From: Muricoccus nepalensis
Lineage (GTDB): Bacteria; Pseudomonadota; Alphaproteobacteria; Acetobacterales; Acetobacteraceae
Direction of reading: 5' to 3'
Assembly: GCF_006438825.1 (NCBI RefSeq)
Contig: NZ_RCZP01000003.1
Coordinates: 248,001 to 312,000 of the forward strand
Length of the DNA stretch: 64,000 bases
Positions 31,701 through 50,674 of this stretch are shown one piece after another; within the stretch, counting starts at the first letter, position 1; every line of letters starts with the position of its first letter. The notes below the pieces were generated by a model, which ran no database searches, was not told where the DNA came from, and saw nothing but the letters and a program-made list of their open reading frames with translations. Made by a program: the position numbers and the translations under genes.

Positions 31701-31709
31701 CCCCTCCCC

Positions 31710-31737
31710 CCGGCGGCGGGCCCGCGCCCGCCGCCGG
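31710..31737 (+). terminator. 12-bp intercistronic hairpin after the binding-protein gene
   Basis: CCGGCGGCGGGC and GCCCGCCGCCGG are perfect complements around a CCGC loop, starting 9 bp after the livK stop and 24 bp before livG. There is no T-tract. It is placed like the hairpin after dctP and probably raises the ratio of receptor to ATPase by attenuation or by blocking 3' exonucleases. Confidence 0.6.
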
Positions 31738-31761
31738 CAACCCCGCGAGGCGCCCCGCCCC

Positions 31762-33214: not shown

Positions 33215-33240
33215 GCAAGCCCGGCACCGGACCCTCGCCC

Positions 33241-34242
33241 ATGATCATCGACATCCACGCGCACACCTTCTGCCCGGCGGTGGAGCCGCTGCTGCGCGAC
33301 CAGCCCGGCCACGCCGCCATTCCCTACAAGCGCGACATTCACCCCGACAGCGCCGCCACCGACGCCGGCCAGGCGGCCCTGCTGCGCGAGCCCTTCAACG
33401 ACCTCGCGCGCCGGCGGGCCGACATGGCGCGCATGCGGGTCGACGCCCAGCTCGTCGCCCCCGCCCCGGGCCAGCAGCACTACTGGGCCGAGCCCGCCCT
33501 GCTCGCCCGCGTCTCGGCGATGCAGAACGACCACGTCGCGGGCCTCGTCGCCGAGGCCCCCGGCCTCCTCGCGGGCCTCGGCACCCTGCCCATGGCCGAC
33601 GTCCCCGCCGCCATCGCCGAGGCGCGCCGCGCGGCGGAGGGCCTCGGCCTCCGCGGCTTCCAGATCGACTCCCGCGTCAACGAGCGCGAGCTCTCCGACC
33701 CTGCCTTCGACCCCCTCTGGGAGGAGCTCTCCCAGCTCGGCGCCGTCCTCGTCATCCACCCGCTCGGCTTCTCCGACGGCGCCCGCCTCGGCCCCTTCTT
33801 CATGGTCAACACGGTGGGCCAGCCGCTGGAGGAAACCATCGCCTTCCACCACCTCGTCCTCGGCGGCGTGCTCGACCGCCACCCCGGCCTGAAGGTCCTC
33901 ATCTGCCACGGCGGCGGCTACGTGCCCTCCTATGTCGGCCGCCTCGACCACGCCTGGGAGCACCGGCCCGAGCTCCGCCGCCTCATCCCCCGGCCGCCCT
34001 CGGCCTACCTGCCGCGCCTCTTCTTCGACACCTGCGTCTTCCGCCCCGACCTCATCGAGAACCTCGTCCGCCTCGCCGGGGCCGAGCGGGTGATGCTCGG
34101 CTCCGACTACCCCTTCGACATGGGCGACCCCGACCCACTGGCCACGCTCGACGCGGCCGGGGCGCTGCCCGCGGCCGACCGCGCGGCGATCGCGGGCGGC
34201 AACGCGGCCCGCCTCTTCCGGATGGCCCCGCCCCCCGCCTGA
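33241..34242 (+). CDS. ACMSD-like amidohydrolase/decarboxylase
   Basis: This 333-residue TIM-barrel protein belongs to the aminocarboxymuconate-semialdehyde decarboxylase (ACMSD/amidohydrolase_2) group. Metal ligands are visible: IDIHAHTF (HxH, residues 3-10), VLVIHPLGF, KVLICHGGGYVPSY and the Asp in VMLGSDYPFDMGDP. Members decarboxylate or hydrolyse aromatic or vinylogous acids. It lies 26 bp after livF and is the last gene of the operon, which suggests an imported (hetero)aromatic acid processed by this enzyme, FAH and the PuuE-like protein. The order of steps is not known. Confidence 0.87.
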   Translation: MIIDIHAHTFCPAVEPLLRDQPGHAAIPYKRDIHPDSAATDAGQAALLREPFNDLARRRADMARMRVDAQLVAPAPGQQHYWAEPALLARVSAMQNDHVAGLVAEAPGLLAGLGTLPMADVPAAIAEARRAAEGLGLRGFQIDSRVNERELSDPAFDPLWEELSQLGAVLVIHPLGFSDGARLGPFFMVNTVGQPLEETIAFHHLVLGGVLDRHPGLKVLICHGGGYVPSYVGRLDHAWEHRPELRRLIPRPPSAYLPRLFFDTCVFRPDLIENLVRLAGAERVMLGSDYPFDMGDPDPLATLDAAGALPAADRAAIAGGNAARLFRMAPPPA

Positions 34243-34327: not shown

Positions 34328-36643
34328 TCAGCCCCGCAGCACCTGCCGCGCCGTCGCCGCCGCCTCGATCCCCGTCCAGGCGTAGCGCATCGGCACCATC
34401 TCGCAGGCCGCCCAGGCCGCGTGCTGGTCGGCGTAGTGGGGACTTCCTGGCCGGCCCGACGCGCCGTGGAACACCGCCCAGCGGCAGGCCTCCCAGTGGC
34501 CGACGTCGAAGGCGTAGCGCGCGAGCGGCCCGTAGGCCGCGGCCGTCCCCGCGGAGGCGACCACGCCCTGCGCGAGCACCGTGTCCCCGTCGCCCCCGAT
34601 CGCCCGCGCCGGGGCGTCCAGCAGCGCGGCCGCCTCCGGGAAGAGGGCCGAGAGGGGATGCGCGAAGCGCGGCCGGTGCGCCTCCCCCCAGGGCCGCCCC
34701 GCCTCGACCTCCGGGGCCGCGGCCGCCTCGGCGAGCGCGGCGCCCATCGCCTCCTCCCAGCTCCAGCCGCCCAGCAGCGAGGCGTCGTCCGCCCGCAGCA
34801 GGGCCGGCAGCGCCCACCAGAGTTGGTTGAGCGGCACCACCCCCGGCGAGGGCGAGAGCCAGGCATGCCCCGCGACCCCCGCGAGCCCGCTCCGCGCCGC
34901 CAGCACCCCCGTCAGCGCGCGGCGGAGCGCGACATAGGCCGTCGCCGCCGCGCTGCCCGCCTCCATCCGCCCGTCCCAGCCGAGCAGCCGCGCCCGCAGC
35001 GCCGCCGCGGCCTCCCCGGCCGGCGCCGGCTGGCGCGCCAGGCGCTCCTGGAACAGCAGCGCGATGGGGGAGAGGACGTCGCCGTGGATGGCCCCCGCGC
35101 CCCCCGGCCCCGGCCTGCCCGCCGCCAGCAGCTCGGCGATCCGCCGCGCCCGGTGCGGCGGGTGGCAGTCGGTGCAGAGGTAGTCGGGATGCCCGTCCGC
35201 CACCACGCGGTTGTTCGCCGTCACGATCACGCCGCCCAGCGGGTCCAGCACCACCGGCATCGCCCCGGGCTCGATCCACCCCTCCCACTCATGCCGCCCG
35301 AGCCAGCCCGGCACGGGCAGCCACCCGTTCTCCCGCGCCCGCCGCGGCACCTTCGCGCGCACGAGGTGGCCGATCCGCCCCGCCGTGTCCGCCGCGACCA
35401 GGTTGTGGTCGATCACGCCCCAGCCCCGCGTCGCCTCGAACAGCGCCTCCACGCCCCCGGCCCGCAGCATCCGCGGCAGGCAGTCGAAGGACCGGTCGGT
35501 CTCGGCGAACTGCACGGAGCGCAGCGCGAGCGCCGTCCCGGACTCCGGGTCGCCCGCGATGACCGGCCCGTGCGCCGTCTCGACGACCGTCACCGCGCGG
35601 TCCGCCCCGCCGCGCACCCGCACCACCTCCGTGCGGCGCGAGACCGGCCGCCAGCCCTCGGCCGTCAGGGTGTTCGCCGCGCCCTCGTCGAAGCGCTCGA
35701 GGTAGAGGTCGTGGATGTCCATGAAGGCGTGCGTGACGCAGTAGGCGACGCGCCCGTTATGGGCGAAGTGCGGGAAGCCCGGCACGCCCGGCACGGTCAG
35801 CCCGATCACGTCGAAGGCGTCGCAGGCGAGGTGGTGCTGCGCGTACATGTTCGGCATCTCGAAGACCCGGTGCGGGTCGCCCGCCAGCACCGGCCGCCCC
35901 GTCGCGCTGCGCGACGGCCCGACCGCCCAGTTGTTGCTCCCGCCCCCCGTCGCGTCCCCGCCCTGGGCTTCGAGCAGGGCAGCAATGGCCGGGGCGAGCG
36001 CGGCGAGGTCCGCCTCCCACCGCGCCGCTTCCGCGCCCGGCGGGATGCAGAGCAGGTCCCCGCCCCCGTCGTCGTAGCGAAGCTTCGCCGCGCCCGCCGC
36101 CCCCACCACGGGCAGCGCCGCCGCCCGCCACAGCTTGAACCAGACCGAGCCCATCAGCAGCCCGAGGCGGCGCATGACCGCGATCGGGTGCCAGGGCTCC
36201 CAGGCCTCCGGCGCGGCGCCGAGCAGCGCGTACTCGATCGGCAGCGGCGCGCCGGCGCCGAGAAAGGCGTTCACCCCCGCCGCGTAGGCCTCGAGCATCG
36301 CGCGCGCCTCCGGCGAGGCCGCCGCGAAGTCGCGCCGGCTGGCCGCCTCCACCCCCAGGCGCCGCGCCAGCGCGTCCCCCTCCGCCGCCGCCGGGCCGAG
36401 CCATTCCGCGGCCCGCCCGAGCGCGCGGCGGCGGTTCAGCTCCATCTGGAACAGCCGGTCCTGCGCGTGCACGGCGCCGAGCGCGAACCAAGCGTCGGCC
36501 TCGCCCGCCGCCCGGATGTGCGGCACGCCCCACTCGTCCCGCAGCACCTCGACCGGGGCCGCGAGGCCGGGCAGGCGCAGCTCCCCCGCCAGCGGCGGCA
36601 GCGCCGCCTCCAGCATCTCGGGCGTCAGCTTCGCGGCGGCCAT
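34328..36643 (-). CDS. Penicillin acylase family Ntn-hydrolase, no visible signal peptide
   Basis: This 771-residue protein belongs to the penicillin G acylase/AHL acylase family. VEVLRDEWGVPHIRAAGEADAWFALG near the start is the family opening. The autoprocessing and nucleophile site is GGGSNNWAVGP with Ser236. LAGDPHRVFEMPNMYAQHHL, VPGVPGFPHFAHNGRVAYCVTH and the Asn-containing VIVTANNRV complete the active site. The ATG at 36643 (MAAAKLTPEML) begins where homology begins; the longer frame upstream comes from the AT-rich operator. Most characterised members are periplasmic, but no signal peptide is visible here, so this may act in the cytoplasm on an imported amide. Confidence 0.87.
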   Translation of the reverse strand: MAAAKLTPEMLEAALPPLAGELRLPGLAAPVEVLRDEWGVPHIRAAGEADAWFALGAVHAQDRLFQMELNRRRALGRAAEWLGPAAAEGDALARRLGVEAASRRDFAAASPEARAMLEAYAAGVNAFLGAGAPLPIEYALLGAAPEAWEPWHPIAVMRRLGLLMGSVWFKLWRAAALPVVGAAGAAKLRYDDGGGDLLCIPPGAEAARWEADLAALAPAIAALLEAQGGDATGGGSNNWAVGPSRSATGRPVLAGDPHRVFEMPNMYAQHHLACDAFDVIGLTVPGVPGFPHFAHNGRVAYCVTHAFMDIHDLYLERFDEGAANTLTAEGWRPVSRRTEVVRVRGGADRAVTVVETAHGPVIAGDPESGTALALRSVQFAETDRSFDCLPRMLRAGGVEALFEATRGWGVIDHNLVAADTAGRIGHLVRAKVPRRARENGWLPVPGWLGRHEWEGWIEPGAMPVVLDPLGGVIVTANNRVVADGHPDYLCTDCHPPHRARRIAELLAAGRPGPGGAGAIHGDVLSPIALLFQERLARQPAPAGEAAAALRARLLGWDGRMEAGSAAATAYVALRRALTGVLAARSGLAGVAGHAWLSPSPGVVPLNQLWWALPALLRADDASLLGGWSWEEAMGAALAEAAAAPEVEAGRPWGEAHRPRFAHPLSALFPEAAALLDAPARAIGGDGDTVLAQGVVASAGTAAAYGPLARYAFDVGHWEACRWAVFHGASGRPGSPHYADQHAAWAACEMVPMRYAWTGIEAAATARQVLRG

Positions 36644-36671: not shown

Positions 36672-36681
36672 TGATATATCA
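36672..36681. promoter_or_regulatory. TGATATATCA palindrome, site 1
   Basis: This perfect 10-bp palindrome lies in the 95-bp region between the divergent penicillin acylase and gntR genes, 29 bp from one start and 58 bp from the other. The identical site recurs at 42206 and a one-mismatch copy at 45174, each in a divergent promoter region. It is the likely operator of the adjacent GntR protein. Confidence 0.6.
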
Positions 36682-36738
36682 AATACTCTTCCTGTCGATT
36701 TCCCGGAGAGCCATCCTGCCCACCGTCGCCGAGCCCCG

Positions 36739-37425
36739 ATGACCGATCCCCTCGCCTCCCTCGCGCCCATCGGCCGGGACAACCTCGCCGGGCGCGTCTA
36801 CGCGGAGCTCCGCGACGCCCTGCTGGAGGGCCGCCTGGCCCCGGGCCAGCGGCTCAAGATCCGCGGGCTCGCGGCGGCGATGGGCGTCTCCGAGACGCCG
36901 GTGCGCGAGGCGGTGATGCAGCTCGTCCGGGAGCGGGCACTCCGCATGGAGGCCGCCCGCTCGATCACCGTCGCCGGCCTCACCCTCGAGCAATACCTCG
37001 AGCTCCGCCTCGTGCGCCTCGAGCTTGAGGGCCTGGCCGCCGAGGCGGCGGCGCTGCGCATCCGCCCGGAGGCCATCGAGGCGCTCGCTTCCGACCATGA
37101 GGCCCTCGTCGCGGCGGAGGCGCGCGGCGACGCGCCGGCCGCGAACCGCGCGAACTGGCGCTTCCACCACGGCATCCACCGCGCGGCCGCCATGCCCGAG
37201 CTGCAGGCGATCATCGAGGGCATCTGGCTCCGCAACGGCCCGACCCTGGCCCACCTCTACCCCCACGCCCCCCCGACCTATCCCGGCCGCCACCGCCATC
37301 TCGACGTGCTGGACGGCCTGCGCGCGCGCGACCCCGTCGCCACGCGCGCGGCCCTCGCCGCCGACATGACCGAGGGCGGCGCGGGCCTCGTGCGCCGCCT
37401 GCGCGACCTGGAGGAGAACGCGTGA
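36739..37425 (+). CDS. GntR-family regulator, FCD subfamily, of the acylase/amidase genes
   Basis: This 228-residue regulator has a winged HTH at residues 15-80 (AAAMGVSETPVREAVMQLVRERAL) and an FCD domain with the His-rich pocket (WRFHHGIHRAAAM and RHRHLDVLDGL). It is divergent from penicillin acylase, and its stop overlaps the GTG of the E1 fusion gene (GTGA). The TGATATATCA palindrome upstream recurs before the two family-5 binding-protein/enzyme pairs downstream, so it probably controls all of them. The effector is unknown. Confidence 0.92.
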   Translation: MTDPLASLAPIGRDNLAGRVYAELRDALLEGRLAPGQRLKIRGLAAAMGVSETPVREAVMQLVRERALRMEAARSITVAGLTLEQYLELRLVRLELEGLAAEAAALRIRPEAIEALASDHEALVAAEARGDAPAANRANWRFHHGIHRAAAMPELQAIIEGIWLRNGPTLAHLYPHAPPTYPGRHRHLDVLDGLRARDPVATRAALAADMTEGGAGLVRRLRDLEENA

Positions 37426-39590
37426 CGACCACCCCGCTCCGCACCGACACCCCCTGGTTCCGCCTCGAGACGGAGGAGGAGGACTGGACCCGGGAATCGC
37501 CGGCCGACCTCGCGCGCTGGATGGAGCAGCTCCTCGTCATCCGCCGCTTCGAGGAGGCCATCCTCGACCTCCACGGCAAGGGGCTCGTCCACGGCCCCGC
37601 CCACGCCTCCATCGGCCAGGAGGCGGGCGCGGTCGGCGCGATGTCGGTGCTCTCGAGCGCGGACAAGATCAACGGCACGCACCGCGCGCACCACCAGATC
37701 CTCGCCAAGCTCCTCAACCACGCGACCCCGCCCGGCCACGACCCCCGCCACGACCCGCCCGCCGAGGGGGCCGCGGCCCTCGTCCGGGGCGCCATGGCGG
37801 AGATCATGGGCCTCTCCTCCGGCTTCTGCGGCGGCCGCGGCGGCTCCATGCACATGCGCCACGCGGCCTCGGGCATCGTCGGCAGCTCCGCCATCATCGG
37901 CGGCAACGTGCCCCACGCCGCCGGCTACGCGCTCGCCGACAAGGTGCTCGGCCGCGACCACCTCTCGGTCGCCTTCTTCGGCGACGGCACGCTGATGGCG
38001 GGCCAGACGCTGGAGGCGATCAACCTCGCGGCCCTCTACGCGCTGCCCGTCGTCTTCTTCCTCGAGAACAACCTCTACGCCGTCTCCACCCACGTCTCGG
38101 AGCAGACGCGCGAGACGCGCCTCACCACCCGCGGCGCCATGCTCGGCGTGCCCGCCATCGAGTGCGACGGCATGGACCTGCTCGCCGTCCGCCGCGCCAT
38201 GCAGTGGGCGGCCACCACCATCCGCGAGCGCGGCGGCCCCGTCCTCATCGAGGCGACCCTCTACCGCTTCCTCCACCAGTCCGGCCCCCTGCTCGGCAGC
38301 CAGCTCGGCTACCGCAGCAAGGAGGAGGAGGAGGCCTGGCGCGCGCGCGACCCGCTGCTCACCCTGCCGGCGCGGCTGAGGGCGCTCGGCGTCCTCGACG
38401 ACGCGGGGCTCGCGGCGCTCGAGGCGCGGGCGCGGCGCCTCGTGGAGGAGGCGGTCGACGCGCTGACGGAGACGCCGCCCGGCGCCAACGCCCCCGCGCT
38501 CCGCCCCGGCCTCCTCCCCGATCCTGCGGAGGTCGACCGCGGCATCCGGGGCGACCTCGCCGAGCTCGCCGGGGAGCGCTTCCGCGAGGCCGGCACCCTC
38601 CCGGCCGAGCCGGTGCGCGAGACGCGCTACATCGACGCCGTCGCCGCCGCCCTGCTGCGCAACATGGAGCGCGACCCGCGCGTCGTCGTCATCGGCGAGG
38701 ACATCCACCGCCTCCGCGGCGGCGTCTCCGGCTCGACGAAGGGCGTGATGGAGCGCTTCCCCAACCGCGTCTTCGCCACCCCCATCTGCGAGAACGGCTT
38801 CACCGGCATGGCGCTCGGCGCCGCCCTCTGCGGGCTGAGGCCGGTCGTGGACATCATGTTCGGCGACTTCACCATCGTCGCGGCCGACCAGATGTTCAAC
38901 GGCATCGGCAAGTTCGCGCATATGTTCGGCGGCGGCTTCGGCGTGCCCCTCGTCGTGCGAGCCCGCGTCAGCCCCGGCACCGGCTATGGCTCGCAGCACT
39001 CCATGGACCCCTCCGCCCTCTTTGCGATGCACCCGGGCTGGCGCATCGTCTCGCCCTCGACGCCGCACGACTACGTCGGGCTGATGAACAGCGCGATCCG
39101 CTGCGAAGACCCCGTGCTGGTCATCGAGCACGCGGAGCTCTTCGCCGAGACCGGGCCAGTGCCGCTCGACCCCGACTACTGCGTCCCGCTCGGCCGCGCC
39201 CGCGTCGCGCGCCCCGGCTCGGCCTGCACCGTCCTCACCTACGCCGCCATGGTGCGGGCGAGCGAGGAGGCCGCGCGCGAGACCGGGGTCGACGCCGAGG
39301 TCATCGACCTCCGCACCCTCGATCCCTTCGGCCTCGACTGGGAGACGGTGGAGGCGAGCGTCCGCCGCACCAGCCGGGTTCTTATCGCCGAGCAGACCGC
39401 GCGCGGCACCTCCCTCGGCGCGCGCCTGGCCGCGGAGATCGGCGAGCGCTGCTTCGACTGGCTCGACGCCGAGATCCTCCGCGTCAGCGGCGGTGAGGCG
39501 GCGCCGACGGTCTCGCGACCCCTGAACCGGGCGGCGCTGGGGGACGCGGCGAAGGTCGCGGCGGCCCTCCGGCGCCTGGTGCCGGGCTGA
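37422..39590 (+). CDS. Fused E1 alpha-beta subunit of a TPP-dependent 2-oxoacid/acetoin-type dehydrogenase
   Basis: This 722-residue chain joins both E1 subunits. Residues 25-325 are E1 alpha (LLVIRRFEEAILDLHGKG, GSMHMRHAASG and the TPP motif GDGTLMAGQTLEAINLAAL ending at ENNLYA). Residues 395-720 are E1 beta (YIDAVAAALLRNMERDPRVVVIGED, FATPICENGFTGMALGAAL, DLRTLDPFGLDWETV). About 70 linker residues join them. No E2 or E3 gene is near, so partner enzymes must be elsewhere, or it works as a decarboxylase or with another acceptor. The start is GTG at 37422, overlapping the gntR stop, so it is co-expressed with the regulator. Confidence 0.88.
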   Translation: MTTTPLRTDTPWFRLETEEEDWTRESPADLARWMEQLLVIRRFEEAILDLHGKGLVHGPAHASIGQEAGAVGAMSVLSSADKINGTHRAHHQILAKLLNHATPPGHDPRHDPPAEGAAALVRGAMAEIMGLSSGFCGGRGGSMHMRHAASGIVGSSAIIGGNVPHAAGYALADKVLGRDHLSVAFFGDGTLMAGQTLEAINLAALYALPVVFFLENNLYAVSTHVSEQTRETRLTTRGAMLGVPAIECDGMDLLAVRRAMQWAATTIRERGGPVLIEATLYRFLHQSGPLLGSQLGYRSKEEEEAWRARDPLLTLPARLRALGVLDDAGLAALEARARRLVEEAVDALTETPPGANAPALRPGLLPDPAEVDRGIRGDLAELAGERFREAGTLPAEPVRETRYIDAVAAALLRNMERDPRVVVIGEDIHRLRGGVSGSTKGVMERFPNRVFATPICENGFTGMALGAALCGLRPVVDIMFGDFTIVAADQMFNGIGKFAHMFGGGFGVPLVVRARVSPGTGYGSQHSMDPSALFAMHPGWRIVSPSTPHDYVGLMNSAIRCEDPVLVIEHAELFAETGPVPLDPDYCVPLGRARVARPGSACTVLTYAAMVRASEEAARETGVDAEVIDLRTLDPFGLDWETVEASVRRTSRVLIAEQTARGTSLGARLAAEIGERCFDWLDAEILRVSGGEAAPTVSRPLNRAALGDAAKVAAALRRLVPG

Positions 39591-39623
39591 GAGGCCCGAC
39601 CCTCAACCCCGGCGGGTTTTCTC

Positions 39624-39634
39624 GTAAACTTTAC
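39624..39634 (+). promoter_or_regulatory. GTAAA-C-TTTAC inverted repeat, candidate enhancer site
   Basis: Perfect 5-bp arms flank a single central base, 62 bp upstream of the -24/-12-like element of the PEP-CTERM gene. Activators of sigma-54 promoters bind at such distances. The binding protein is unknown. Confidence 0.35.
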
Positions 39635-39695
39635 ATCTCTGGGCTGCAACCCGCGGTCGCTCCGGCAACACCCTGTTCCGCCTGGACAATTTCTC

Positions 39696-39711
39696 TGGCA
39701 TGCCGCTTGCC
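39696..39711 (+). promoter_or_regulatory. Candidate sigma-54 promoter
   Basis: TGGCATGCCGCTTGCC has GG (39697-39698) and GC (39709-39710) with exactly 10 bases between them and near-consensus TGGCA-N-TTGC flanks. It lies 74 bp before the PEP-CTERM gene start. PEP-CTERM genes are known to be controlled by RpoN with PrsK/PrsR in some bacteria, which supports the call. Confidence 0.5.
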
Positions 39712-39784
39712 GTCTGCTGGTCGCCCCGTCCGTGATCCGGTCGGGGCATTCGCGTCCACGAGAATCGTAGCAGAGGAAGGACCC

Positions 39785-40564
39785 ATGGGAGCTTCGATAA
39801 AAGCCGCCCTGCTGGCAGCCTGCGCGTTCTTAGGTGCCACAGCCGCGCAAGCGACACCCTTCACCCTCACCTCACCCACCGGCGGCCTCCTGCCCGCCGG
39901 CGTGTCGGAGGTCGGCGGCATCGTCATCGACCTCACGGGCGCGAGCGGCACGCGCGTCGTCAGCCAGGTGGCGGCCAGCACCGAGTTTGTCGGCAACCAG
40001 AGCGCCAGCAACAACCCGCTGCTCTTCGGCACGCAGACCGGCTTCACCTCCTCGATCGTCTCGTCGCTCGGCGGCGGGCTCACCGCCGCCTCCTTCCGCA
40101 TCACCCTCTACGACGGCGACAGCCAGGCCGGCGACTTCGACTTCAACGAGAACAACCTGCTGGTCAACGGCGTGAACTTCGGCAACTTCAGCAGCGTCGC
40201 CACGCAGGAGACGAACGGCACGGGCACCACCGTGCTCTCGAGCGGCCTGGGCTTCGGGAACAACATCCTTGGCACCGGCTTCTTCAGCTCCACCAACAGC
40301 AGCATTCTCTCGGCCCTGTTCGGTACGCTCGCGAGCGGCAGTCTGCAGTTCCAGGTGAACGACGCCAGCCCCGGCGACCAGTTCTACGACTTCACCCAGG
40401 GGCTCGACGCCTCGCTCATCAACGTCGGCAGCGGACCCGTGATCGCCCCGCCCGGCGGCGGCACCGTCCCTCCGGTCACCAGCGTGCCCGAGCCCGCCTC
40501 CCTCGCGCTCTTCGGCCTCGGCCTTGCCGGGCTCGGCTTGGCGCGCCGCCGGCGCCCCGCCTGA
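39785..40564 (+). CDS. PEP-CTERM sorting-domain protein, exported
   Basis: This 259-residue secreted protein has an N-terminal signal peptide (MGASIKAALLAACAFLGATAAQA). The mature region is rich in Gly, Ser, Asn and Thr and low in charge. The C-terminus is a classic PEP-CTERM tripartite signal: VPEPASLALF, a hydrophobic stretch and a basic tail RRRRPA. An exosortase would cleave it; none is in the window. The ATG at 39785 has AGAGGAAGGA upstream. PEP-CTERM proteins usually act in exopolysaccharide or biofilm matrix. The specific role of this one is unknown. An upstream sigma-54-like element suggests regulated expression. Confidence 0.88.
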   Translation: MGASIKAALLAACAFLGATAAQATPFTLTSPTGGLLPAGVSEVGGIVIDLTGASGTRVVSQVAASTEFVGNQSASNNPLLFGTQTGFTSSIVSSLGGGLTAASFRITLYDGDSQAGDFDFNENNLLVNGVNFGNFSSVATQETNGTGTTVLSSGLGFGNNILGTGFFSSTNSSILSALFGTLASGSLQFQVNDASPGDQFYDFTQGLDASLINVGSGPVIAPPGGGTVPPVTSVPEPASLALFGLGLAGLGLARRRRPA

Positions 40565-40586
40565 GGGAGGGCGCACACCGACGCGG

Positions 40587-40612
40587 CGGGCGGCCTTCCC
40601 AGAGGCTGCCCG
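40587..40612. terminator. Bidirectional hairpin between convergent genes
   Basis: CGGGCGGCC (40587-40595) and GGCTGCCCG (40604-40612) pair over 9 positions with one G-U and an 8-base loop, in the 58-bp space between the convergent PEP-CTERM and binding-protein genes. There is no long T-tract, but the position suits a shared terminator. Confidence 0.45.
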
Positions 40613-40622
40613 TTGCCCGCAC

Positions 40623-42161
40623 CTAGCGCAGCCGCAGGTCCTGCACCCGCACCAGCCCGTCCGGATGGGCCCGCAGCCCCTCCAGCCGCGACGAGGCCCC
40701 GTGCAGCACCCGCGAGTGCCAGAGGTAGATGTAGGGGCGATCGCGCAGCAGCACGCGCATCGCCGCCTCGTAGGCCGCGGCGCGGCGCGCCGGGTCCACG
40801 CTCGTGCGGCCCTCGCGCAGCGCGGCATCGGCCTCGGCGGAGCAGTACCTGCCGCCGTTCAGGCTCTCCCCGCAGGCGTTGAAGCCCCAGAGGTTGCCGT
40901 CGAGGTCGACGCGCCCCGACCAGGCGATCAGCAGCGCCTCGAAGTCGCCTGCCGTCCATTGCCGCAGCAACGTCGCCGTCTCGACGAGCTGCAGCTCGAC
41001 CTCGATCCTGGCCTCGGCCGCCATCGCCTGGATGACCTCCGCCGCCTGGGTGTACTCGCTCGTGTTCGGCACGGAGAGGCGGAGCTTCGCGCGGCCCTCG
41101 AAGCCGGCCTCGCGCAGGAGCGCCCGCGCGCGGGGAAGGTCCCGCCCCGGCACGGGCAGGGCGGCCACGTAGTTCGGGCTCGCCGGCGAGGCCGACTGGT
41201 TGCCCGGCAGGTACTGGCCATCGAAGGCGACCTGCACGAGGGCCTGGCGGTCGATCGCGCGCTCCAGCGCCTCGCGCGCCCGCGGGTCGCGGCCAAAGGG
41301 CGTCGCGGCGCGCGGCCCGTTCGCGACGTTCACCGCGATGTAGACGCTGTTCAGGCTCGGCGCGGCCGCGATCCGCACCCGGCGGTCGGCGCCCAGCTCC
41401 GGCAGGTCCGTCGCGGCCACGCGCTCGGCGACGTCGAGCGTCCCGGCGCGGAGGTTCGCGGCCGTGACCGTGCTGTCGGTGATGGGGCGGTAGACCAGCC
41501 GGTCGACGTGGATCCGCGCCGCGTCCCAGTAGCCCGCGAAGCGCTCGAGCTCGATCCGGTCCTGCGCCACGCGGCGCACGAAGCGGAAGGGGCCGGCGCA
41601 GAGGGGCTCGCGCGCGAAGTCCTGGTTCACGCGCCCCGCCGCGCCCGGCGAGACGATCATCCCCGCGCGGTCGGACAGGGCGGCGAGCAGCGGCGCGAAG
41701 GGCTGCTCCAGCCGCAGCGTCACCTCCAGCGGCCCGGTGGCGACGACCTCGCGCAGCGGCCCCATCTCGCCGCGGCGGGTCGAGGCGGGCGTGTCGAGGT
41801 GGCGCCGCAGCCCCGCGGCCACCGCCGCCGCGTCCATCGCCGCGCCGTCGTGGAAGCGCACGCCCGGGCGGAGCGCGAGCACGAGGGCGCGCCCCTCCTC
41901 CTCCCACCGCCAGGCCGTCGCGAGCTGCGGCACGAGCCGCCCCTCGGCGTCGAGGTCGAGGAGCTTGTCGCACATCGCCGCGAAGACCTGCCGCGCGGCG
42001 AGGCTGCGGGAGAGCGTCGGGTCCAGCACGTCCGGGTCGCTCGCGATGCCGATCCGGAGCGTGGCGCCCGGCGCGCCCCCTTGCGCCAGGGCGGGCGTCG
42101 CCGACGGGGCAGCAAGGGCGGCGAGCACGAGGCCCGTCAGGGCGAGGCGCGGCATCCGCAT
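40623..42161 (-). CDS. Family-5 (peptide/nickel-type) ABC substrate-binding protein, orphan
   Basis: This 512-residue periplasmic binding protein has the signal peptide RLALTGLVLAALAAPSATPALA. The DppA/OppA-type blocks are TLRIGIASDPDVLDPTLSRSL, LVPQLATAWRWEEEGRALVL, RPGVRFHDGAAMDAAAVAAG and the C-terminal RDRPYIYLWHSRVLHG. No permease or ATPase follows. It is divergent from the class III aminotransferase-fold gene, with the TGATATATCA site between them, so it is probably induced with it. Ligands of this family are peptides, opines or other amide-containing compounds. Confidence 0.9.
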   Translation of the reverse strand: MRMPRLALTGLVLAALAAPSATPALAQGGAPGATLRIGIASDPDVLDPTLSRSLAARQVFAAMCDKLLDLDAEGRLVPQLATAWRWEEEGRALVLALRPGVRFHDGAAMDAAAVAAGLRRHLDTPASTRRGEMGPLREVVATGPLEVTLRLEQPFAPLLAALSDRAGMIVSPGAAGRVNQDFAREPLCAGPFRFVRRVAQDRIELERFAGYWDAARIHVDRLVYRPITDSTVTAANLRAGTLDVAERVAATDLPELGADRRVRIAAAPSLNSVYIAVNVANGPRAATPFGRDPRAREALERAIDRQALVQVAFDGQYLPGNQSASPASPNYVAALPVPGRDLPRARALLREAGFEGRAKLRLSVPNTSEYTQAAEVIQAMAAEARIEVELQLVETATLLRQWTAGDFEALLIAWSGRVDLDGNLWGFNACGESLNGGRYCSAEADAALREGRTSVDPARRAAAYEAAMRVLLRDRPYIYLWHSRVLHGASSRLEGLRAHPDGLVRVQDLRLR

Positions 42162-42205
42162 GGGGACCCTCCCGGAGGACTGGCGAAATCCTGCCCCGCC
42201 CGATA

Positions 42206-42215
42206 TGATATATCA
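42206..42215. promoter_or_regulatory. TGATATATCA palindrome, site 2
   Basis: This copy is identical to site 1, in the 78-bp region between the divergent binding-protein and aminotransferase-fold genes. It lies 45 bp and 25 bp from their starts. GATAT is repeated just before it (42202-42206). Confidence 0.6.
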
Positions 42216-42239
42216 ACCCTCCAGCAAAGGACCGCGCCC

Positions 42240-43502
42240 GTGTCCCAGGCCATCGCCGCCGCGCCGGCGCCCCTTCCTGCCCCCGCGTTGCCCCTCGACA
42301 CGGCGCTGCGCGCCCGCGCGAGCCGGGTCATCCCCGGCGGCCTCTGGGGCCACCTCAACGCCGCCCGCCTGCCCGAGGGCTACCCGCAGTTCTTCGCGCG
42401 CGCCGAGGGCTGCCGTCTCTGGGACGCGGACGGGCGGGAGTTCATCGACTTCATGTGCTCCTGGGGCCCCATCGTCCTCGGGCACCGCCACCCCGTGGTG
42501 GAGGAGGCGGCGCGCGCGCAGGCAGCGCGGGGCGACTGCCTGAACGGCCCCGCCCCGGTGCTGGTGGAGCTCGCCGAGTTGCTGGTCGCGACGATCCCGC
42601 ACGCCGAGTGGTGCCTGCTGGCCAAGAACGGCACCGACGCGACGACGAGCTGCGTCACCGTCGCCCGCGCGGAGACGAGGCGGCGCAAGATCCTCGTCGC
42701 GCGCGGCGCCTACCACGGGGCGGTGCCCTGGTGCTCGCCCTCCATCGCGGGGGTGACGGAGGAGGACCGCGCGCACCTCATCCCCTTCGACTACAACGAT
42801 GCCGCGAGCCTTGAGGCCGCGGCCGGCTGCGCGGGCGCGGACCTCGCGGGAATCATCGTCTCCGCCTTCCGCCACGACATGGGCGTCGCCCTCGAGCTGC
42901 CCGACCCCGCCTTCGCGCGCGCCGCCCGCGCGGCGGCGGACGCGGCCGGCGCCGCGCTGATCCTCGACGACGTGCGCGCGGGCTTCCGCCTCGACCTCGG
43001 CGGCTCCTGGGAGACGGTGGGCGTGCGGCCGGACCTCGCGGCCTACAGCAAGGCGATCGCCAACGGCCACGCGCTGGCCGCCGTCACCGGCGCCGAGCGC
43101 TTCCGCGACGCCGCCACGCGCGTCTTCACCACCGGGTCCTTCTGGTGCACCGCCGTGCCCATGGCGGCGGCGGTCGCCACCCTCACGGAGCTCCGTCGCC
43201 TGGATGGCCCCGCGCGGATGCGGGCGATGGGCGAGCGCCTGCGCGCGGGCCTCGACCGCCTGGCCGCGCGGCACGGGCTCGCGATCCGCAACAGCGGGCC
43301 GCCGGCGATGCCGCTGATGCAGTTCGCCGACGACCCCGGCGCCCGCCTCGGCGAGGCCTTCTGCGCGGCGGCGCTGCGGGCGGGCGCCTACTTCCACCCG
43401 CGCCACAACATGTTCCTCTCCTGCGCCCACGGCGAGGCCGAGATCGACGCGGCGCTGGAGGCCGCCGACGCCGGCTTCGCCGCCGTCGCGCGGCTCGGCT
43501 AG
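42240..43502 (+). CDS. Class III PLP aminotransferase/glutamate-1-semialdehyde aminomutase-like protein
   Basis: This 420-residue fold-type I PLP enzyme opens with RASRVIPGGLWGHLNAARLP (residues 24-43), has DADGREFIDFMCSWGPIVLGH and LLAKNGTDATTSCVTVAR for cofactor contact. ALILDDVRAGFR supplies the PLP-binding Asp and YSKAIANGHALAAVTG the Schiff-base Lys. The start is GTG at 42240 with AAAGGA about 9 bases upstream. It resembles the HemL-like branch used in amino-acid catabolism. It shares a TGATATATCA promoter region with an orphan binding protein and overlaps the next convergent gene by 4 bp. The substrate is unknown. Confidence 0.87.
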   Translation: MSQAIAAAPAPLPAPALPLDTALRARASRVIPGGLWGHLNAARLPEGYPQFFARAEGCRLWDADGREFIDFMCSWGPIVLGHRHPVVEEAARAQAARGDCLNGPAPVLVELAELLVATIPHAEWCLLAKNGTDATTSCVTVARAETRRRKILVARGAYHGAVPWCSPSIAGVTEEDRAHLIPFDYNDAASLEAAAGCAGADLAGIIVSAFRHDMGVALELPDPAFARAARAAADAAGAALILDDVRAGFRLDLGGSWETVGVRPDLAAYSKAIANGHALAAVTGAERFRDAATRVFTTGSFWCTAVPMAAAVATLTELRRLDGPARMRAMGERLRAGLDRLAARHGLAIRNSGPPAMPLMQFADDPGARLGEAFCAAALRAGAYFHPRHNMFLSCAHGEAEIDAALEAADAGFAAVARLG

Positions 43503-45082
43503 ACCGAGACCTCCCAGAAGATCGGGAAGCTGGAGCGGAGGAGGCCCTTCATCCGGCTGCGGTAGCCGGCCGGGCGCGAGAACTGGCCCCACATGAGGTT
43601 CGGCACGAGCTCGTAGGCGATCACCTGGATCTCGTCCGCGAGGCGCCGCTTCTCCTCCATCGTTCCCGCCTTGGCGAAGCGCTCGACGAGGGTCGGGATG
43701 CGCGCGTCGCAGCTCCAGCCCGGGTAGTCCGCGCAGGTGCTCGCGATGTAGAAGTGGTTCAGCGGCGAGACCATGTCGACGCCGTTGGAGTAGACGGGGA
43801 AGAGGCTCCAGCCCTGCTTGTTCGCGCGGCGCGCGAGCACGGTGCCCCAGTCCATCACCTGCTCGTCCACCGTGAAGCCCGCCTCCTTCAGCGCCTGGGC
43901 GAAGACGTTGGCCGCGGTCTGCGAGATGGAGCCCGAGACCTCCAGCATCACCACCGGCTCGCCCCTGTAGCTCGTGCGGCGAAGCATCTCGCGCGCGGCG
44001 GCCACGTCGTAGCGCGCGGGCTCCGCGCCCGCCCGCGTCTCGAGCGGCGCGTCGCACATCCAGAAGGAGTTGCAGCCGGGCTTGGCGAAGCGCGCGGGGA
44101 TGCCGATCGCCTGCATGATGCTCGACTGGTCCACGAGGTGCCAGAGCACCTTGCGCACCTCGGGGTCGGCGAAGGGGCCGCTCGCGTGGTTGAGGCGGAA
44201 GTTGCCCTGGAACATGTGGATGCCCGAGAGGCCCATCAGCTCCACGCCCCGCGCCCGCTCCAGCCGCTGGAGCTGGTCGAAGGCGAGGTACTGCACGTAG
44301 TCGACCTCGCCGGCCGAGAGGGCGCTGGCCGCCGTGCCGTCGTCGGGCATGACGCGCAGCACGAGGCTCTCGACCTTCGCGCGCTTGCCCCCCGCGAGGA
44401 AGTCCGGCGGCTCCTCGCGCGGGACGTAGAGCGGGTTGCGGGCGAGCACCATCCGGTCGCCCGCCCGCCACTCCGCCGCGCGGAAGGCGAAGGGGCCGGA
44501 GCCGACGATCTCGGTGACGCGCGCTCCGGGATCGGCGGGAAGGACGCGGGCCGGCAGCATGAAGGGCACGGGCGCGTTGGGCTTGCCCAGCACGTCCAGC
44601 AGCAGCGGGAAGGGCTCCTTCAGCGCGATCGTGAAGACCGCGGCGCTTCGCGGCTCGATGGAGGCGGTGACCGCCTGCAGCATTCGCCCCAGCGGGTCGC
44701 GCGGCATCCAGCGCCGGAGCGAGGCCACGCAGTCCGCCGCCGTCACCGGCGCGCCGTCGTGCCAGAGCAACCCGTCCCGCAGCGTGAAGGTCCAGAGGAG
44801 GCCGTCGGGCGAGCGCTCGTGGGAGCGCACCATCTGCGGCCGGATCTCCCCGTTCTCCGCCATGGCAAAGAGCGTGTCCCAGACGTGGTAGCCGAAGGTG
44901 CGCGTGATCGCCGCGGTGGTCGTGTAGGGGTCGAGGATGACGACCTCGGATTCCAGCACCAGCGTCAGCGTCCCGGCCTCCTGCGGGGCGCGCTGGGCGA
45001 GGGCGGGCCGGGCCGCGCCGCCGGCGGCGAGGGCCGCGCCGGCCCGCAAGAGGGCGCGCCGCCCCGGATCCTGCTTCAGCAT
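43499..45082 (-). CDS. Family-5 (peptide-type) ABC substrate-binding protein, orphan, Tat-like signal
   Basis: This 527-residue binding protein starts at 45082 (MLKQDPGRRALLRAG) with GGAAGGAAGA upstream; the open frame extends 29 codons further. The leader has twin Arg followed by AGAALAAGGAARPALA. DppA-type blocks are DPYTTTAAITRTFGYHVWDTL, WTFTLRDGLLWHDGAPVTAADCV and ELVPNLMWGQFSRPAGYRS. No transport partners are adjacent. It is divergent from the amidase, with a degenerate TGATATATCA site in between, which suggests capture of an amide that the amidase then hydrolyses. Confidence 0.9.
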   Translation of the reverse strand: MLKQDPGRRALLRAGAALAAGGAARPALAQRAPQEAGTLTLVLESEVVILDPYTTTAAITRTFGYHVWDTLFAMAENGEIRPQMVRSHERSPDGLLWTFTLRDGLLWHDGAPVTAADCVASLRRWMPRDPLGRMLQAVTASIEPRSAAVFTIALKEPFPLLLDVLGKPNAPVPFMLPARVLPADPGARVTEIVGSGPFAFRAAEWRAGDRMVLARNPLYVPREEPPDFLAGGKRAKVESLVLRVMPDDGTAASALSAGEVDYVQYLAFDQLQRLERARGVELMGLSGIHMFQGNFRLNHASGPFADPEVRKVLWHLVDQSSIMQAIGIPARFAKPGCNSFWMCDAPLETRAGAEPARYDVAAAREMLRRTSYRGEPVVMLEVSGSISQTAANVFAQALKEAGFTVDEQVMDWGTVLARRANKQGWSLFPVYSNGVDMVSPLNHFYIASTCADYPGWSCDARIPTLVERFAKAGTMEEKRRLADEIQVIAYELVPNLMWGQFSRPAGYRSRMKGLLRSSFPIFWEVSV

Positions 45083-45173
45083 CGCGTCTTCCTTCCTGGA
45101 CAAGGGGAGCAAGCGGTTGGCCGCGTTGGATCGCGGCGCGGGACGGGGCGCCTCCTTGGTGGGCGCCACCGGA

Positions 45174-45190
45174 CGATATATCAGATATCG
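45174..45190. promoter_or_regulatory. TGATATATCA-like site 3 inside a larger inverted repeat
   Basis: CGATATATCA (45174-45183) differs from sites 1 and 2 at the first base. It is part of CGATAT-ATCAG-ATATCG (45174-45190), with perfect 6-bp arms. It lies in the 155-bp divergent region, 92 bp from the binding-protein start and 48 bp from the amidase start. Confidence 0.5.
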
Positions 45191-45237: not shown

Positions 45238-46671
45238 GTGCCCGACGATAGTCCCCTCTTCCTCACGGCCGCCCAGGCCGGCGCGCTCATCCGGCGGCGA
45301 GCCCTCTCGCCTGTCGAGTACGCGGAGGCCGTGCTGGCGGCGGCCGAGCGCGCCCAGCCCCGCCTCAACGCCTTCGTCACCATCACCCGCGAGCGCGCCC
45401 TGGCCGAGGCGCGGGCGGCCGAGGCCGCGGTGATGGCGGGCGCGCCGCTCGGCCCGCTGCACGGCATCCCCGTCAGCATCAAGGACCAAGTGGACACCGC
45501 GGGCATCCGCACCACCCACGGCTCCGCCATCTTCGCCGACAACGTGCCGGCGCGGGACGATATCTTGGTGACGCGGCTGCGCGCGGCCGGGGCGGTGCTG
45601 ATCGGCAAGACCCGCCTTCCCGAGTTCGGCCACAAGGGCCTGACGGACGGCCCCTCCTTTGGCGCGACGCCCAACCCCTGGGACCCCTCCCGCACCTCGG
45701 GCGGCTCGAGCGGGGGCGCGGCGGCGGCGCTCGCCGTGGGCCTCGGCCCGATCGCGCTCGGCACGGACGGGGCGGGCTCGATCCGCATCCCCGCCGCCTG
45801 CTGCGGCGTGGTGGGGTTGAAGCCGACCCTCGGCGCGGTGCCATGGGAGTCGGCCGCGGACGCCTTCGGCAACTACACCTACGCCGGCCCCATGGCGCGC
45901 AGCGTGACGGACGCCGCGCTGATGCTGCAGGCCATCGCCGGACCCAGCCCGCAGGACCCCTGGAGCCTGGGCCGGACCGGCCTCGCCACCCTGTCGCCGG
46001 GTCTCCTCGGCGAGGACCTCTCGGGGCTCCGCGTCGGCTTCATCGAGCGCGCCGCCAACCCGCGGCTGGACCGCGACATGGAGGCCAACACGCGCGCCTC
46101 CCTTGACGCGCTCGCCGCCCTCGGCGCGGCAGTGGAGCCGGTGACCGAGGCGATCGACTGGATCGAGCTCCCGGGGCGCATGATGTACCAGGGCAACTAC
46201 GCCGTCTCGATGGCGAAGCACCTGCCGGAATGGCGCGGGCGGATGGACCCGGCGCTCCTCGCCTTTGTCGAGCGCGGCGGCGCCTTCACCCTCGCCGAGT
46301 TCCGCCAGGCGCAGTACGCGCGCACGCGCCTCTTCCGCGCCGTGCAGGCCCTGTTCGAGCGCTACGACGTGCTCGTCTCCCCCACCCTCACCCGCACGGC
46401 GCTCCCGATCGACTTCGATGCCGCGAACGACGAGGTGGAGGTCGAGGGCGAGCGCTGCGGGATCACGCGGCAGGGCTGGAGCGCCTATGTCTACCCCTTC
46501 AACCTCACGGGCCACCCCGCCCTCACCGTCCCTTCCGGCGTGGCGCGCGACGGGCTGCCGACGGCGGTGCAGATCGTGGGCCGTTGGGGCGCGGACCTCG
46601 ACGTGCTGCGCCTCGGCGCGCTGCTCGAATCGGCGCGCCCCTGGTCGGGCCGCCGCCCGCCGGCGGCCTAA
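45238..46671 (+). CDS. Amidase signature family hydrolase
   Basis: This 477-residue amidase has the Ser-cisSer-Lys triad: Lys in GIPVSIKDQVDTAGI near residue 82, and the Ser pair in RTSGGSSGGAAAALAVGLGP near 155-174 with PIALGTDGAGSIRIPAACCG following. Length is typical. The start is GTG at 45238 with GAGGAGC upstream. It hydrolyses carboxamides to acid plus ammonia or amine. Together with penicillin acylase it gives the locus two unrelated amide-cleaving enzymes, probably under one regulator. Confidence 0.92.
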   Translation: MPDDSPLFLTAAQAGALIRRRALSPVEYAEAVLAAAERAQPRLNAFVTITRERALAEARAAEAAVMAGAPLGPLHGIPVSIKDQVDTAGIRTTHGSAIFADNVPARDDILVTRLRAAGAVLIGKTRLPEFGHKGLTDGPSFGATPNPWDPSRTSGGSSGGAAAALAVGLGPIALGTDGAGSIRIPAACCGVVGLKPTLGAVPWESAADAFGNYTYAGPMARSVTDAALMLQAIAGPSPQDPWSLGRTGLATLSPGLLGEDLSGLRVGFIERAANPRLDRDMEANTRASLDALAALGAAVEPVTEAIDWIELPGRMMYQGNYAVSMAKHLPEWRGRMDPALLAFVERGGAFTLAEFRQAQYARTRLFRAVQALFERYDVLVSPTLTRTALPIDFDAANDEVEVEGERCGITRQGWSAYVYPFNLTGHPALTVPSGVARDGLPTAVQIVGRWGADLDVLRLGALLESARPWSGRRPPAA

Positions 46672-47280: not shown

Positions 47281-47415
47281 CACCCCCGCCCTCTGGCTGC
47301 CGCAAACCGGTGGACCGTCATCCCGGGCCTTCACCAGACGGCCCTCCGGGCAAGACGCCCGTCTCAACGCGTGTCCGCCGCGGCGCCGAAGCGCCTTGGC
47401 CGGGAGAACACCATC

Positions 47416-47616
47416 TTGCAACACCCTTCCTCCAGGCTTCTCGTCCGGCTCGCCATCCTGCGCGGGCGCTTCCTCCAGGACCGCGCGGGCGTCACGGCCG
47501 TCGAGTACGGCCTGCTCGCCGCCCTCATCGCCGTCGTCATCATCGGCGGCGTCACCGCCTTCGGCGAGTCGCTCAACGGCTTCTTCAACGGCCTCGCGGC
47601 CAAGCTGAAGCTCTGA
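47416..47616 (+). CDS. flp: Flp/Fap-type pilin, copy 2, non-ATG start
   Basis: This is a duplicate of the upstream pilin with the same AG-VTAVEYGLLAALIAVVIIGG core and tail (GESLNGFFNGLAAKLKL). Where copy 1 has ATG-CTG, this copy has ATC-TTG, so the ancestral start codon is lost. TTG at 47416 sits 8 bases from GGGAGA and is my preferred start (66 residues). An in-frame GTG at 47371 would give 81 residues but lacks a good ribosome-binding site. Weak initiation would make it a minor pilin. Confidence 0.85.
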   Translation: MQHPSSRLLVRLAILRGRFLQDRAGVTAVEYGLLAALIAVVIIGGVTAFGESLNGFFNGLAAKLKL

Positions 47617-47771
47617 CGGGGCGGGCGGCGGATCGTGCCGGCCCCTCCCTCCCCCTCCCCCGGCGCGCGCGCGACGCCAACGCCGCAGCGGCCGCGGGGA
47701 ATGAACAGGCCGCAAAACGCCCCCTGGCTCTCTTCATCCTTCGGCAAGCAACGGCCGGTACCATCCCCCTC

Positions 47772-48296
47772 ATGACGCCCGGTTTCCACTACTTCCTCGC
47801 CCTTGCCGCTGCGCTGCCGCTGGCAGCCGCCGCGATCTCGGACGTGGCCACCCGCACCCTGCCGGACCGCGCCGCCCTGGCGGTTGCCGCGCTCGGCCTC
47901 GCCGCGCGCCTGCCGGAGGGCGCTGCCTCCCTGCTGTGGTCGCTCGCGGCCGCCGCCGCGGTCTTCGGTGGATGCTTTCTCCTCTGGCTGCGCGGCTGGC
48001 TCGGCGGCGGCGACGCGAAGCTCCTCCCCGCCGTCGCCCTCCTGGTGCCCGCCGCGGCCGTGCCCGCCCTGCTGCTCGCGGTCGCCATGGCGGGCGGCGT
48101 CCTGGCCGTCGCCTACCTCGCCCTTCCGCACCTCCTCCCGGCCGCGCTGCCGGCGCTGCCTGGCCGCGGCGGCGCGCTGGCCGCCCGCCTGCGGGCCGTG
48201 GAGGCCCGCCGCCTGCGGCGCGGCGCCCCCCTGCCCTACGGCGTCGCCATCGGCGCCGGCGCCCTCGCCGCCACCCTGCTCGCTTCAGGACGCTGA
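47772..48296 (+). CDS. cpaA: Prepilin peptidase CpaA/TadV (A24 family)
   Basis: This 174-residue membrane aspartyl protease matures Flp prepilins. The two catalytic Asp are visible: Asp24 in AAISDVATRTLP and Asp81 in the GxGD-type motif GWLGGGDAKLLP. Five or six hydrophobic segments surround them. The size fits the short TadV type without methylase domain. No good ribosome-binding site precedes the ATG at 47772, but homology starts there. Confidence 0.9.
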   Translation: MTPGFHYFLALAAALPLAAAAISDVATRTLPDRAALAVAALGLAARLPEGAASLLWSLAAAAAVFGGCFLLWLRGWLGGGDAKLLPAVALLVPAAAVPALLLAVAMAGGVLAVAYLALPHLLPAALPALPGRGGALAARLRAVEARRLRRGAPLPYGVAIGAGALAATLLASGR

Positions 48297-48299
48297 ACC

Positions 48300-50671: not shown

Positions 50672-50674
50672 CCC

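What the first reader, a model, noticed from the sequence alone, without database searches (positions are those of the whole stretch)
36672..45190. Three divergent promoters share TGATATATCA: a local GntR regulon for amide or peptide-like compounds
Sites at 36672-36681 and 42206-42215 are identical perfect palindromes, and 45174-45183 has one mismatch. They fall exactly in the three divergent regions: penicillin acylase/gntR, binding protein/aminotransferase, and binding protein/amidase. A 10-mer with eight A/T is very unlikely by chance three times in such GC-rich DNA, and I found no copy elsewhere in the window. The set (two unrelated amide hydrolases, a PLP enzyme, two orphan receptors and an E1 fusion) reads as a capture-hydrolyse-transaminate-oxidise pathway. 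I know of no described system with this composition.
Basis: partly seen in the sequence, partly recalled or inferred. Interest (0 to 1): 0.82.

Follow-up and report, generated by a model that had tools for sequence, protein, structure and literature searches.

The report
GntR regulon for amide-linked amines
Three promoters in this bacterium share a rare DNA switch that almost certainly belongs to one GntR-type regulator, whose targets look like an undescribed pathway that frees an amine from an amide, turns it into a ketone and then splits it.

Summary
TGATATATCA occurs exactly twice in the 6.53 Mb genome assembly, both times in this locus; the third site has one mismatch. The sites mark a GntR/FCD regulon conserved across genomes.

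In ten genomes that carry the regulator (own included), 32 of 37 YGATATATCA places lie before regulon-type genes, some of them unlinked aminotransferase, binding-protein and ABC genes. Among 80 aminotransferase loci, GATATATC is in 19 of 21 with a linked GntR orthologue and 5 of 59 without (Fisher p = 6.5e-12); four of those five have an orthologue elsewhere in the genome. Operator and recognition helix (SETP[VI]REAxxQL) go together, with exceptions.

The aminotransferase is closest to fumonisin aminopentol aminotransferase FumI. In other lineages the E1 slot holds a split transketolase, or an OtnK kinase plus aldolase is present. I infer catabolism of N-acylated amines, probably 2-amino alcohols: amide hydrolysis, transamination to a hydroxyketone, C-C cleavage. 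The regulon is well supported; the substrate is a hypothesis. My paper searches, in an open-licence library, showed no description of it.

The parts
36672..36681 (.). operator TGATATATCA between penicillin acylase (-) and gntR (+)
   Evidence: conserved in orthologous loci
42206..42215 (.). operator TGATATATCA between binding protein A (-) and class III aminotransferase (+)
   Evidence: also before unlinked aminotransferase orthologues in G005 and G009, and before the aminotransferase in Variovorax and Rhizobium
45174..45183 (.). operator CGATATATCA (followed by GATATC) between binding protein B (-) and amidase (+)
   Evidence: core conserved between the same two genes in L057, L058, L061
36739..37425 (+). 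GntR/FCD regulator, predicted to bind the three operators and to regulate itself
   Evidence: Pfam GntR + FCD; co-occurrence with the site
37422..39590 (+). E1 alpha+beta fusion (ThDP enzyme); its start overlaps the end of gntR
   Evidence: ThDP motif GDG..N at residue 187
34328..36643 (-). penicillin acylase-family Ntn hydrolase, closest solved relative glutaryl-7-ACA acylase 4hsr; nucleophile Ser in GGSNNW
40623..42161 (-). SBP_bac_5 binding protein A
   Evidence: orthologues behind the same operator in G002 and G007
42240..43502 (+). class III PLP aminotransferase, closest solved relative FumI
43499..45082 (-). SBP_bac_5 binding protein B
45238..46671 (+). amidase-signature hydrolase (GGSSGG and IKD motifs)

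Best explanation
The three palindromes are operators of the GntR/FCD protein encoded at 36739. It most likely acts as an autoregulated repressor: it sits on the divergent promoters and is released by a small pathway ligand bound in its FCD domain. It controls one catabolic regulon: two peptide-type binding proteins, a penicillin-acylase-like and an amidase-signature hydrolase, a FumI-like aminotransferase and an E1-type ThDP enzyme. Shown here by comparative genomics: the site-regulator-gene association. Inferred: repression, ligand release and the chemistry. The chemistry I commit to: an N-acylated amine, probably a 2-amino alcohol or aminodiol, is captured, deacylated, transaminated to a hydroxyketone and cleaved by the ThDP enzyme (in relatives also by a split transketolase or an OtnK-type kinase plus class II aldolase). 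Confidence in the regulon is about 0.93 and in the amino-alcohol chemistry about 0.35.
For: (1) Rarity: 2 exact places in the 6.53 Mb assembly, both here. (2) Footprinting: GATATATC at regulon promoters in 10 of 10 loci around >=72% GntR orthologues, 24 places. (3) Trans-regulation: 32 of 37 YGATATATCA places in ten regulator-bearing genomes (29 of 34 without the own genome) lie before regulon-type genes, among them unlinked aminotransferase (G005, G009), binding protein A (G002, G007), binding protein B (G002) and ABC operon (G005, G009) genes. (4) Co-occurrence: 19 of 21 against 5 of 59 loci, p = 6.5e-12; eight other 8-mers of the same composition show no such pattern; whole-genome check of 24 loci. 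(5) Across classes: CATGATATATCATG before the Variovorax aminotransferase, TGATATATCA before that of Rhizobium SSA_523. (6) The recognition helix goes with the site: 27 of 29 distinct loci with the signature, 2 of 8 without. (7) FumI is the best solved relative, 405.6 bits against 174.3 for the next. (8) E1 or split transketolase, or OtnK plus aldolase, in 14 of 21 gntR-linked loci against 1 of 59.
Against: No binding or expression data. Loci are not phylogenetically independent. L138 has a 60% orthologue with the same helix but no GATATATC, and L135 only a variant, AATATATCC. L201 (G366) has a 40% GntR near a split transketolase, an ABC transporter and an amidase but no GATATATC. In G018 and G019 only 1 of 4 and 1 of 2 places are regulon promoters, and one place in G005 is unexplained. 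L147 has a site before the aminotransferase but no GntR match in its assembly. The YGATATATCA places in the 14 more distant genomes were not examined. Aminotransferase relatives without the GntR sit near other genes, such as gamma-glutamyltranspeptidase and PhyH, so the aminotransferase alone does not fix the substrate. 7 of 21 gntR-linked loci show neither ThDP enzyme nor kinase plus aldolase within the fetched stretch.
Confidence: 0.8

Rival explanations
1. The motif is a chance or generic AT-rich promoter element (-10-like), not a specific operator.
For: The sites lie 24-91 bp upstream of start codons, where promoters are.
Against: Only 2 exact copies in the genome assembly; perfect palindrome; the site is absent from the same genes in relatives that lack the GntR.
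Confidence: 0.02
2. The sites are bound by another FCD-GntR paralogue rather than the 36739 protein.
For: In G003, G004 and G011, which lack the orthologue, TGATATATCA stands at the start of a different GntR gene (35-37% identity), so the operator type is shared.
Against: None of the 19 other GntR matches of the own genome has GATATATC in its fetched stretch, up to 1.5 kb on each side; the site comes and goes with the 36739 orthologue across 80 loci; one site lies at its own promoter.
Confidence: 0.05
3. Same regulon, but the substrate is an N-acyl beta-amino acid: the acylase frees a beta-amino acid, the aminotransferase makes a beta-keto acid.
For: The DMFA2 protein found beside the regulon in relatives matches N-acetyl-(R)-beta-phenylalanine acylase (8huy, 461 bits) slightly better than dimethylformamidase (436 bits); class III beta-phenylalanine aminotransferases are more distant relatives of the aminotransferase (4ao9, 115 bits).
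Against: FumI is far closer (405.6 bits). A beta-keto acid needs no ThDP enzyme, kinase or aldolase (chemical reasoning). No DMFA2 match in the own genome (a search without a positive control).
Confidence: 0.2
4. Same regulon, but the substrate is an acyl-homoserine lactone, a beta-lactam side-chain compound or a small peptide amide.
For: Variovorax paradoxus VAI-C, which carries the related cluster, grows on acyl-homoserine lactones and has eight loci annotated as penicillin acylases (PMC8142574, whole text read); the nearest solved acylase is glutaryl-7-ACA acylase; SBP_bac_5 receptors commonly bind peptides (recalled).
Against: PvdQ is only a weak match (47.9 bits, cut-off 950). The paper does not single out this cluster. 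Neither chemistry explains a FumI-like aminotransferase together with an E1 or transketolase.
Confidence: 0.15
5. The GntR protein is an activator, or a dual regulator, rather than a repressor.
For: The position of the sites relative to transcription starts is unknown.
Against: Most characterised FCD-GntR catabolic regulators are repressors (recalled, no call); the sites are close to the start codons.
Confidence: 0.12

Closest known systems
GntR/FCD catabolic regulators (PdhR, LldR, PhnR, McbR type)
   Same: GntR winged helix plus FCD domain and, as recalled for the family, short palindromic operators and local catabolic targets; best solved relative McbR 4p9f (84.7 bits).
   Different: Below the curated cut-off of all 7 NCBIfam models matched (best PRK11414, 103 of 225 bits); no paper with this operator beside GntR was found (two unrelated papers).
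Fumonisin degradation by Sphingopyxis MTA144 (FumD, FumI)
   Same: A hydrolase first, then a pyruvate-dependent aminotransferase (PMC5408185, passages seen); FumI is the best solved relative of the aminotransferase. That its substrate is a 2-amino-3-hydroxy compound is recalled.
   Different: Here the hydrolases found are amide hydrolases, with ABC receptors, an E1 fusion and a GntR regulator; I did not search for a FumD-like carboxylesterase.
Acetoin dehydrogenase (AcoA/AcoB/AcoC)
   Same: ThDP E1-type enzyme; E1 fusions of 59-60% identity in Agrobacterium T29 and Shinella HZN7 lie near an E2 annotated as acetoin dehydrogenase E2; the Agrobacterium one passes the NCBIfam cut-off (380 over 307).
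   Different: No such E2 found in the own genome (best 43 bits); alpha and beta fused; substrate unknown.
Cephalosporin/glutaryl-7-ACA acylases (4hsr) and D-succinylase
   Same: 736.7 bits to the 4hsr beta chain; nucleophile Ser in GGSNNW.
   Different: Natural substrate unknown here; in this case the gene is tied to a transamination regulon.

Membership tests
GntR/FCD regulators | GntR winged-helix domain and FCD effector domain above Pfam gathering scores | tested here: met
   55.3 over 27 and 59.6 over 24.3 bits
GntR/FCD regulators | palindromic operator at its own promoter and its targets | tested here: met
   (comparative evidence, no binding assay)
GntR/FCD regulators | ligand-controlled DNA binding | not testable with these tools
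   needs protein
Named GntR equivalogs (PhnR, PdhR, LldR, CsiR; NanR subfamily) | score above curated cut-off | tested here: not met
   7 of 7 matched models below cut-off
FumI-type aminotransferase | closest solved relative is FumI, with clear margin | tested here: met
   405.6 against 174.3 bits; alignment
FumI-type aminotransferase | pyruvate-dependent deamination of a 2-amino-3-hydroxy substrate | not testable with these tools
   activity assay needed
Acetoin dehydrogenase complex | E1 alpha and beta with ThDP motif | tested here: met
Acetoin dehydrogenase complex | dedicated AcoC-type E2 in the genome | tested here: not met
   best match 43 bits, partial (assembly 98% complete); so not filed as this complex
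Penicillin acylase family (Ntn hydrolase) | Pfam Penicil_amidase and N-terminal Ser of the beta chain | tested here: met
   573.8 bits; GG-SNNW; the 4hsr beta chain aligns from its residue 1 to query residue 235
Amidase signature family | Amidase domain with GGSSGG and catalytic Lys motif | tested here: met
   345.7 bits; motifs

The most novel reading that the evidence does not exclude
A GntR-governed, modular catabolic regulon for N-acylated 2-amino alcohols or aminodiols (sphingoid-like, amphenicol-like or aminopolyol amides): interchangeable amide hydrolases free the amine, a FumI-type aminotransferase makes a hydroxyketone, and interchangeable C-C cleavage modules (E1 fusion, split transketolase, or OtnK kinase plus class II aldolase) split it. 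The same GATATATC operator and the same regulator recognition helix are kept from Acetobacteraceae through Rhizobium to the betaproteobacterium Variovorax.
Probability: 0.35. Interest if true: 0.7.

Novelty: new variant of a known kind. Interest (0 to 1): 0.5.

Why it matters
It gives a precise, testable operator-regulator pair that works as a genomic tracer for an undescribed amide-catabolic pathway: members can be found where the site occurs, even when unlinked. If the chemistry is right, it would be a general bacterial route for using acylated amino alcohols and would supply an inducible sensor for them. It would also place FumI, known from mycotoxin degradation, in a wider natural metabolism.

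Tried and rejected
Generic promoter element: rejected on genome-wide rarity and on loss of the site together with the regulator. Regulation by another GntR: considered, less likely. Acetoin dehydrogenase complex proper: not filed for this genome, no E2 found. Membership in named GntR equivalogs: not met. Chloramphenicol-base catabolism as a described parallel: recalled only; the listings seen (20 of 1,027 papers; 5 of 5; 6 of 6) showed nothing useful and none of those papers was opened. Sites in the fetched stretches of the Agrobacterium T29 and Shinella HZN7 plasmids: no GATATATC, so there the E1-aminotransferase set has other control. The PEP-CTERM gene at 39707-40561 is left out of the system: in G005 and G009 E1 is followed directly by binding protein A.

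Paper searches for prior description: 0 papers; 1, unrelated; 15 of 233 listed, none on this; 0; 2, unrelated; listings only. The FumI characterisation paper (PMC3136697) is not held. One search listed 8 of 420; one of them was read whole (PMC8142574).

Full report
OBSERVATION. TGATATATCA occurs at 36672-36681 and 42206-42215 and, with one mismatch, at 45174-45183; nothing else in the window matches within one mismatch, and 0 of 100 dinucleotide shuffles reach three. The own genome assembly (6.53 Mb, 152 contigs) holds two exact places, both here, and the reversed control none. At one mismatch there are seven places, three of them here; the control gives two. The other four (L052, L053, L054, L056) all change the GATATATC core; I looked only at the open frames around them. 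The sites lie between divergent genes, 24-91 bp from the likely start codons. Pfam confirms the gene identities.

CONSERVATION. The GntR protein (GntR + FCD) has orthologues of 72-88% identity in 10 of the 59 other genomes. In stretches of about 20 kb around all ten, GATATATC occurs in 10 of 10, 24 places in all, at the promoters of the penicillin acylase, gntR, ABC operon, aminotransferase, binding protein B and amidase genes. In five of the ten an ABC operon lies between the acylase and gntR (polyamine-type by Pfam in L059); there the site stays with the acylase/ABC promoter.

TRANS-REGULATION. I listed every YGATATATCA place in 36 genomes, the own one included and G029 not, and fetched the unlinked places of the own family. 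In the ten genomes that bear the regulator there are 37 places (a palindrome counted once) and 32 stand before regulon-type genes: G000 3 of 3, G001 3 of 3, G002 4 of 4, G005 4 of 5, G006 3 of 3, G007 4 of 4, G009 6 of 6 (two beside more distant relatives of 46-60% identity), G010 3 of 3, G018 1 of 4, G019 1 of 2. The unlinked ones include the aminotransferase in G005 and G009 (81 and 85%), binding protein A in G002 and G007 (83%), binding protein B in G002 (67%) and the ABC operon in G005 and G009 (81-83%). The site follows the genes, not the neighbourhood. In the 12 same-family genomes without the orthologue there are 12 places, and 6 of them (in G003, G004, G011, G017 and two in G020) lie at or near other GntR genes, so this operator type is shared by some other FCD-GntR proteins. 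The places in the 14 more distant genomes were not examined.

CO-OCCURRENCE TEST. A scan of the genome collection with an aminotransferase alignment found 489 relatives and returned the best 80 loci, which I used without dropping any. GATATATC is present in 19 of 21 loci with a GntR orthologue of >=40% identity and >100 bits, and in 5 of 59 without (Fisher p = 6.5e-12). For loci of >=18 kb it is 14 of 16 against 4 of 33 (p = 4.3e-7). Eight other 8-mers of the same composition show no such pattern. I searched the whole genomes of 24 of the 80 loci for the regulator at E <= 1e-30: all five exceptions, three positives and 16 of the 54 loci with neither. Of the five exceptions, four (L097, L098, L108, L137) have an orthologue of 51-88% elsewhere in their genome and one (L147, a short MAG contig) has no match. 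Of the 16, 11 have no match and five (L104, L105, L114, L128, L149) only a 36-42% relative. Ten of the 16 (L109, L114, L116, L117, L126, L127, L136, L141, L168, L171) hold acylase, binding-protein or amidase genes at 62-75% identity without GATATATC. The contrast holds inside genera: Neoroseomonas oryzicola and N. marina have regulator and site, N. lacus neither; Plastoroseomonas hellenica has both, P. arctica neither. The loci are related by descent, so the p-value overstates independence.

RECOGNITION HELIX. In one search, which read the best GntR match of each long locus, the signature SETP[VI]REAxxQL occurs in 34 loci, five of them second copies of the same stretch; of the 29 distinct ones, 27 hold GATATATC (misses: L135, which has AATATATCC before the aminotransferase, and L138). 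Of the eight more distant GntR proteins without the signature, two have a site (L139, L204). L166 could not be read through this region. Site and regulator extend to Pseudoroseomonas (68%), Rhizobium SSA_523 (55%) and the betaproteobacterium Variovorax paradoxus VAI-C (46%). A search centred on the regulator matched 9 of 385 class members at E <= 1e-35, the own genome included. Of the nine stretches fetched from the other eight genomes, three have the site (G217 first copy, G375, G408) and six do not; the six have GntR proteins of 40-43% without the signature.

WHAT THE REGULON DOES. The aminotransferase is closest to FumI, aminopentol aminotransferase (405.6 bits; next, a glutamate-1-semialdehyde aminomutase, 174.3). 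FumI deaminates hydrolysed fumonisin in the presence of pyruvate (PMC5408185, passages seen). The acylase is closest to glutaryl-7-ACA acylase 4hsr, and the amidase to an aryl acylamidase. In relatives the neighbourhood adds a DMFA2 protein close to N-acetyl-(R)-beta-phenylalanine acylase and dimethylformamidase, a PotA-type ABC transporter, an OtnK kinase that passes the 3-oxo-tetronate kinase cut-off in L067, and a class II aldolase nearest, but below the cut-off of, fuculose-phosphate aldolase. In Variovorax and Rhizobium SSA_523, and in more diverged form in G375 and L135, the place beside gntR is taken by a split transketolase and no E1 fusion was found in the stretch. Among the 21 gntR-linked loci, 19 hold an amide hydrolase and 14 hold a ThDP enzyme or kinase plus aldolase; among the other 59 the numbers are 19 and 1. 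In the Agrobacterium and Shinella plasmids an E1 fusion of 59-60% identity lies near an acetoin-dehydrogenase-type E2. No such E2 was found in the own genome.

MECHANISM. What unites FumI, acetoin-type E1, transketolase and kinase plus fuculose-type aldolase is chemistry on a hydroxyketone next to a former amino carbon (my reasoning from the known reactions of these families). I therefore infer: capture of an N-acyl amine, amide hydrolysis, transamination of a 2-amino alcohol to a hydroxyketone, and C-C cleavage. This last part is inference at about 0.35. An N-acyl beta-amino acid is the main rival. Repression by the GntR is assumed from the family and from the position of the sites.

KNOWN OR NEW. 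The regulator type is well known; the operator, the target set and the pathway were not seen in print (listings; open-licence library only, and one search listed 15 of 233 papers).

Noticed in passing
window 39707-40561: A PEP-CTERM protein gene stands between E1 and binding protein A; the closest relatives G005 and G009 lack it there.
   Followed up: partly
window 29500-34242: Branched-chain-type ABC transporter genes (by reading) with a Peripla_BP_6 receptor and an Amidohydro_2 protein just upstream; no operator site there.
   Followed up: no
L081, L086, L090 (G011, G004, G003): A different FCD-GntR-like gene (35-37% identity) has TGATATATCA at its start, so another regulator group seems to use the same operator.
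   Followed up: partly
L145, L163: FumI-like aminotransferases without a linked GntR orthologue sit near gamma-glutamyltranspeptidase and PhyH dioxygenase genes, possibly a separate amine route.
   Followed up: partly
L068, L069: Agrobacterium T29 and Shinella HZN7 plasmids carry E1 fusion, acetoin-type E2, OtnK-like kinase, class II aldolase, binding protein and FumI-like aminotransferase together, without GATATATC.
   Followed up: partly
L093 (G005:C53), L075, L076 (G018), L078 (G019): Unlinked CGATATATCA places with no recognised regulon gene beside them; in L093 Liv-type ABC genes follow.
   Followed up: no
window 47300-52200: Downstream open frames read like Flp/Tad pilus assembly genes (CpaA-, CpaB-, CpaC-, CpaE-like); judged by eye from the translations, not tested.
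   Followed up: no
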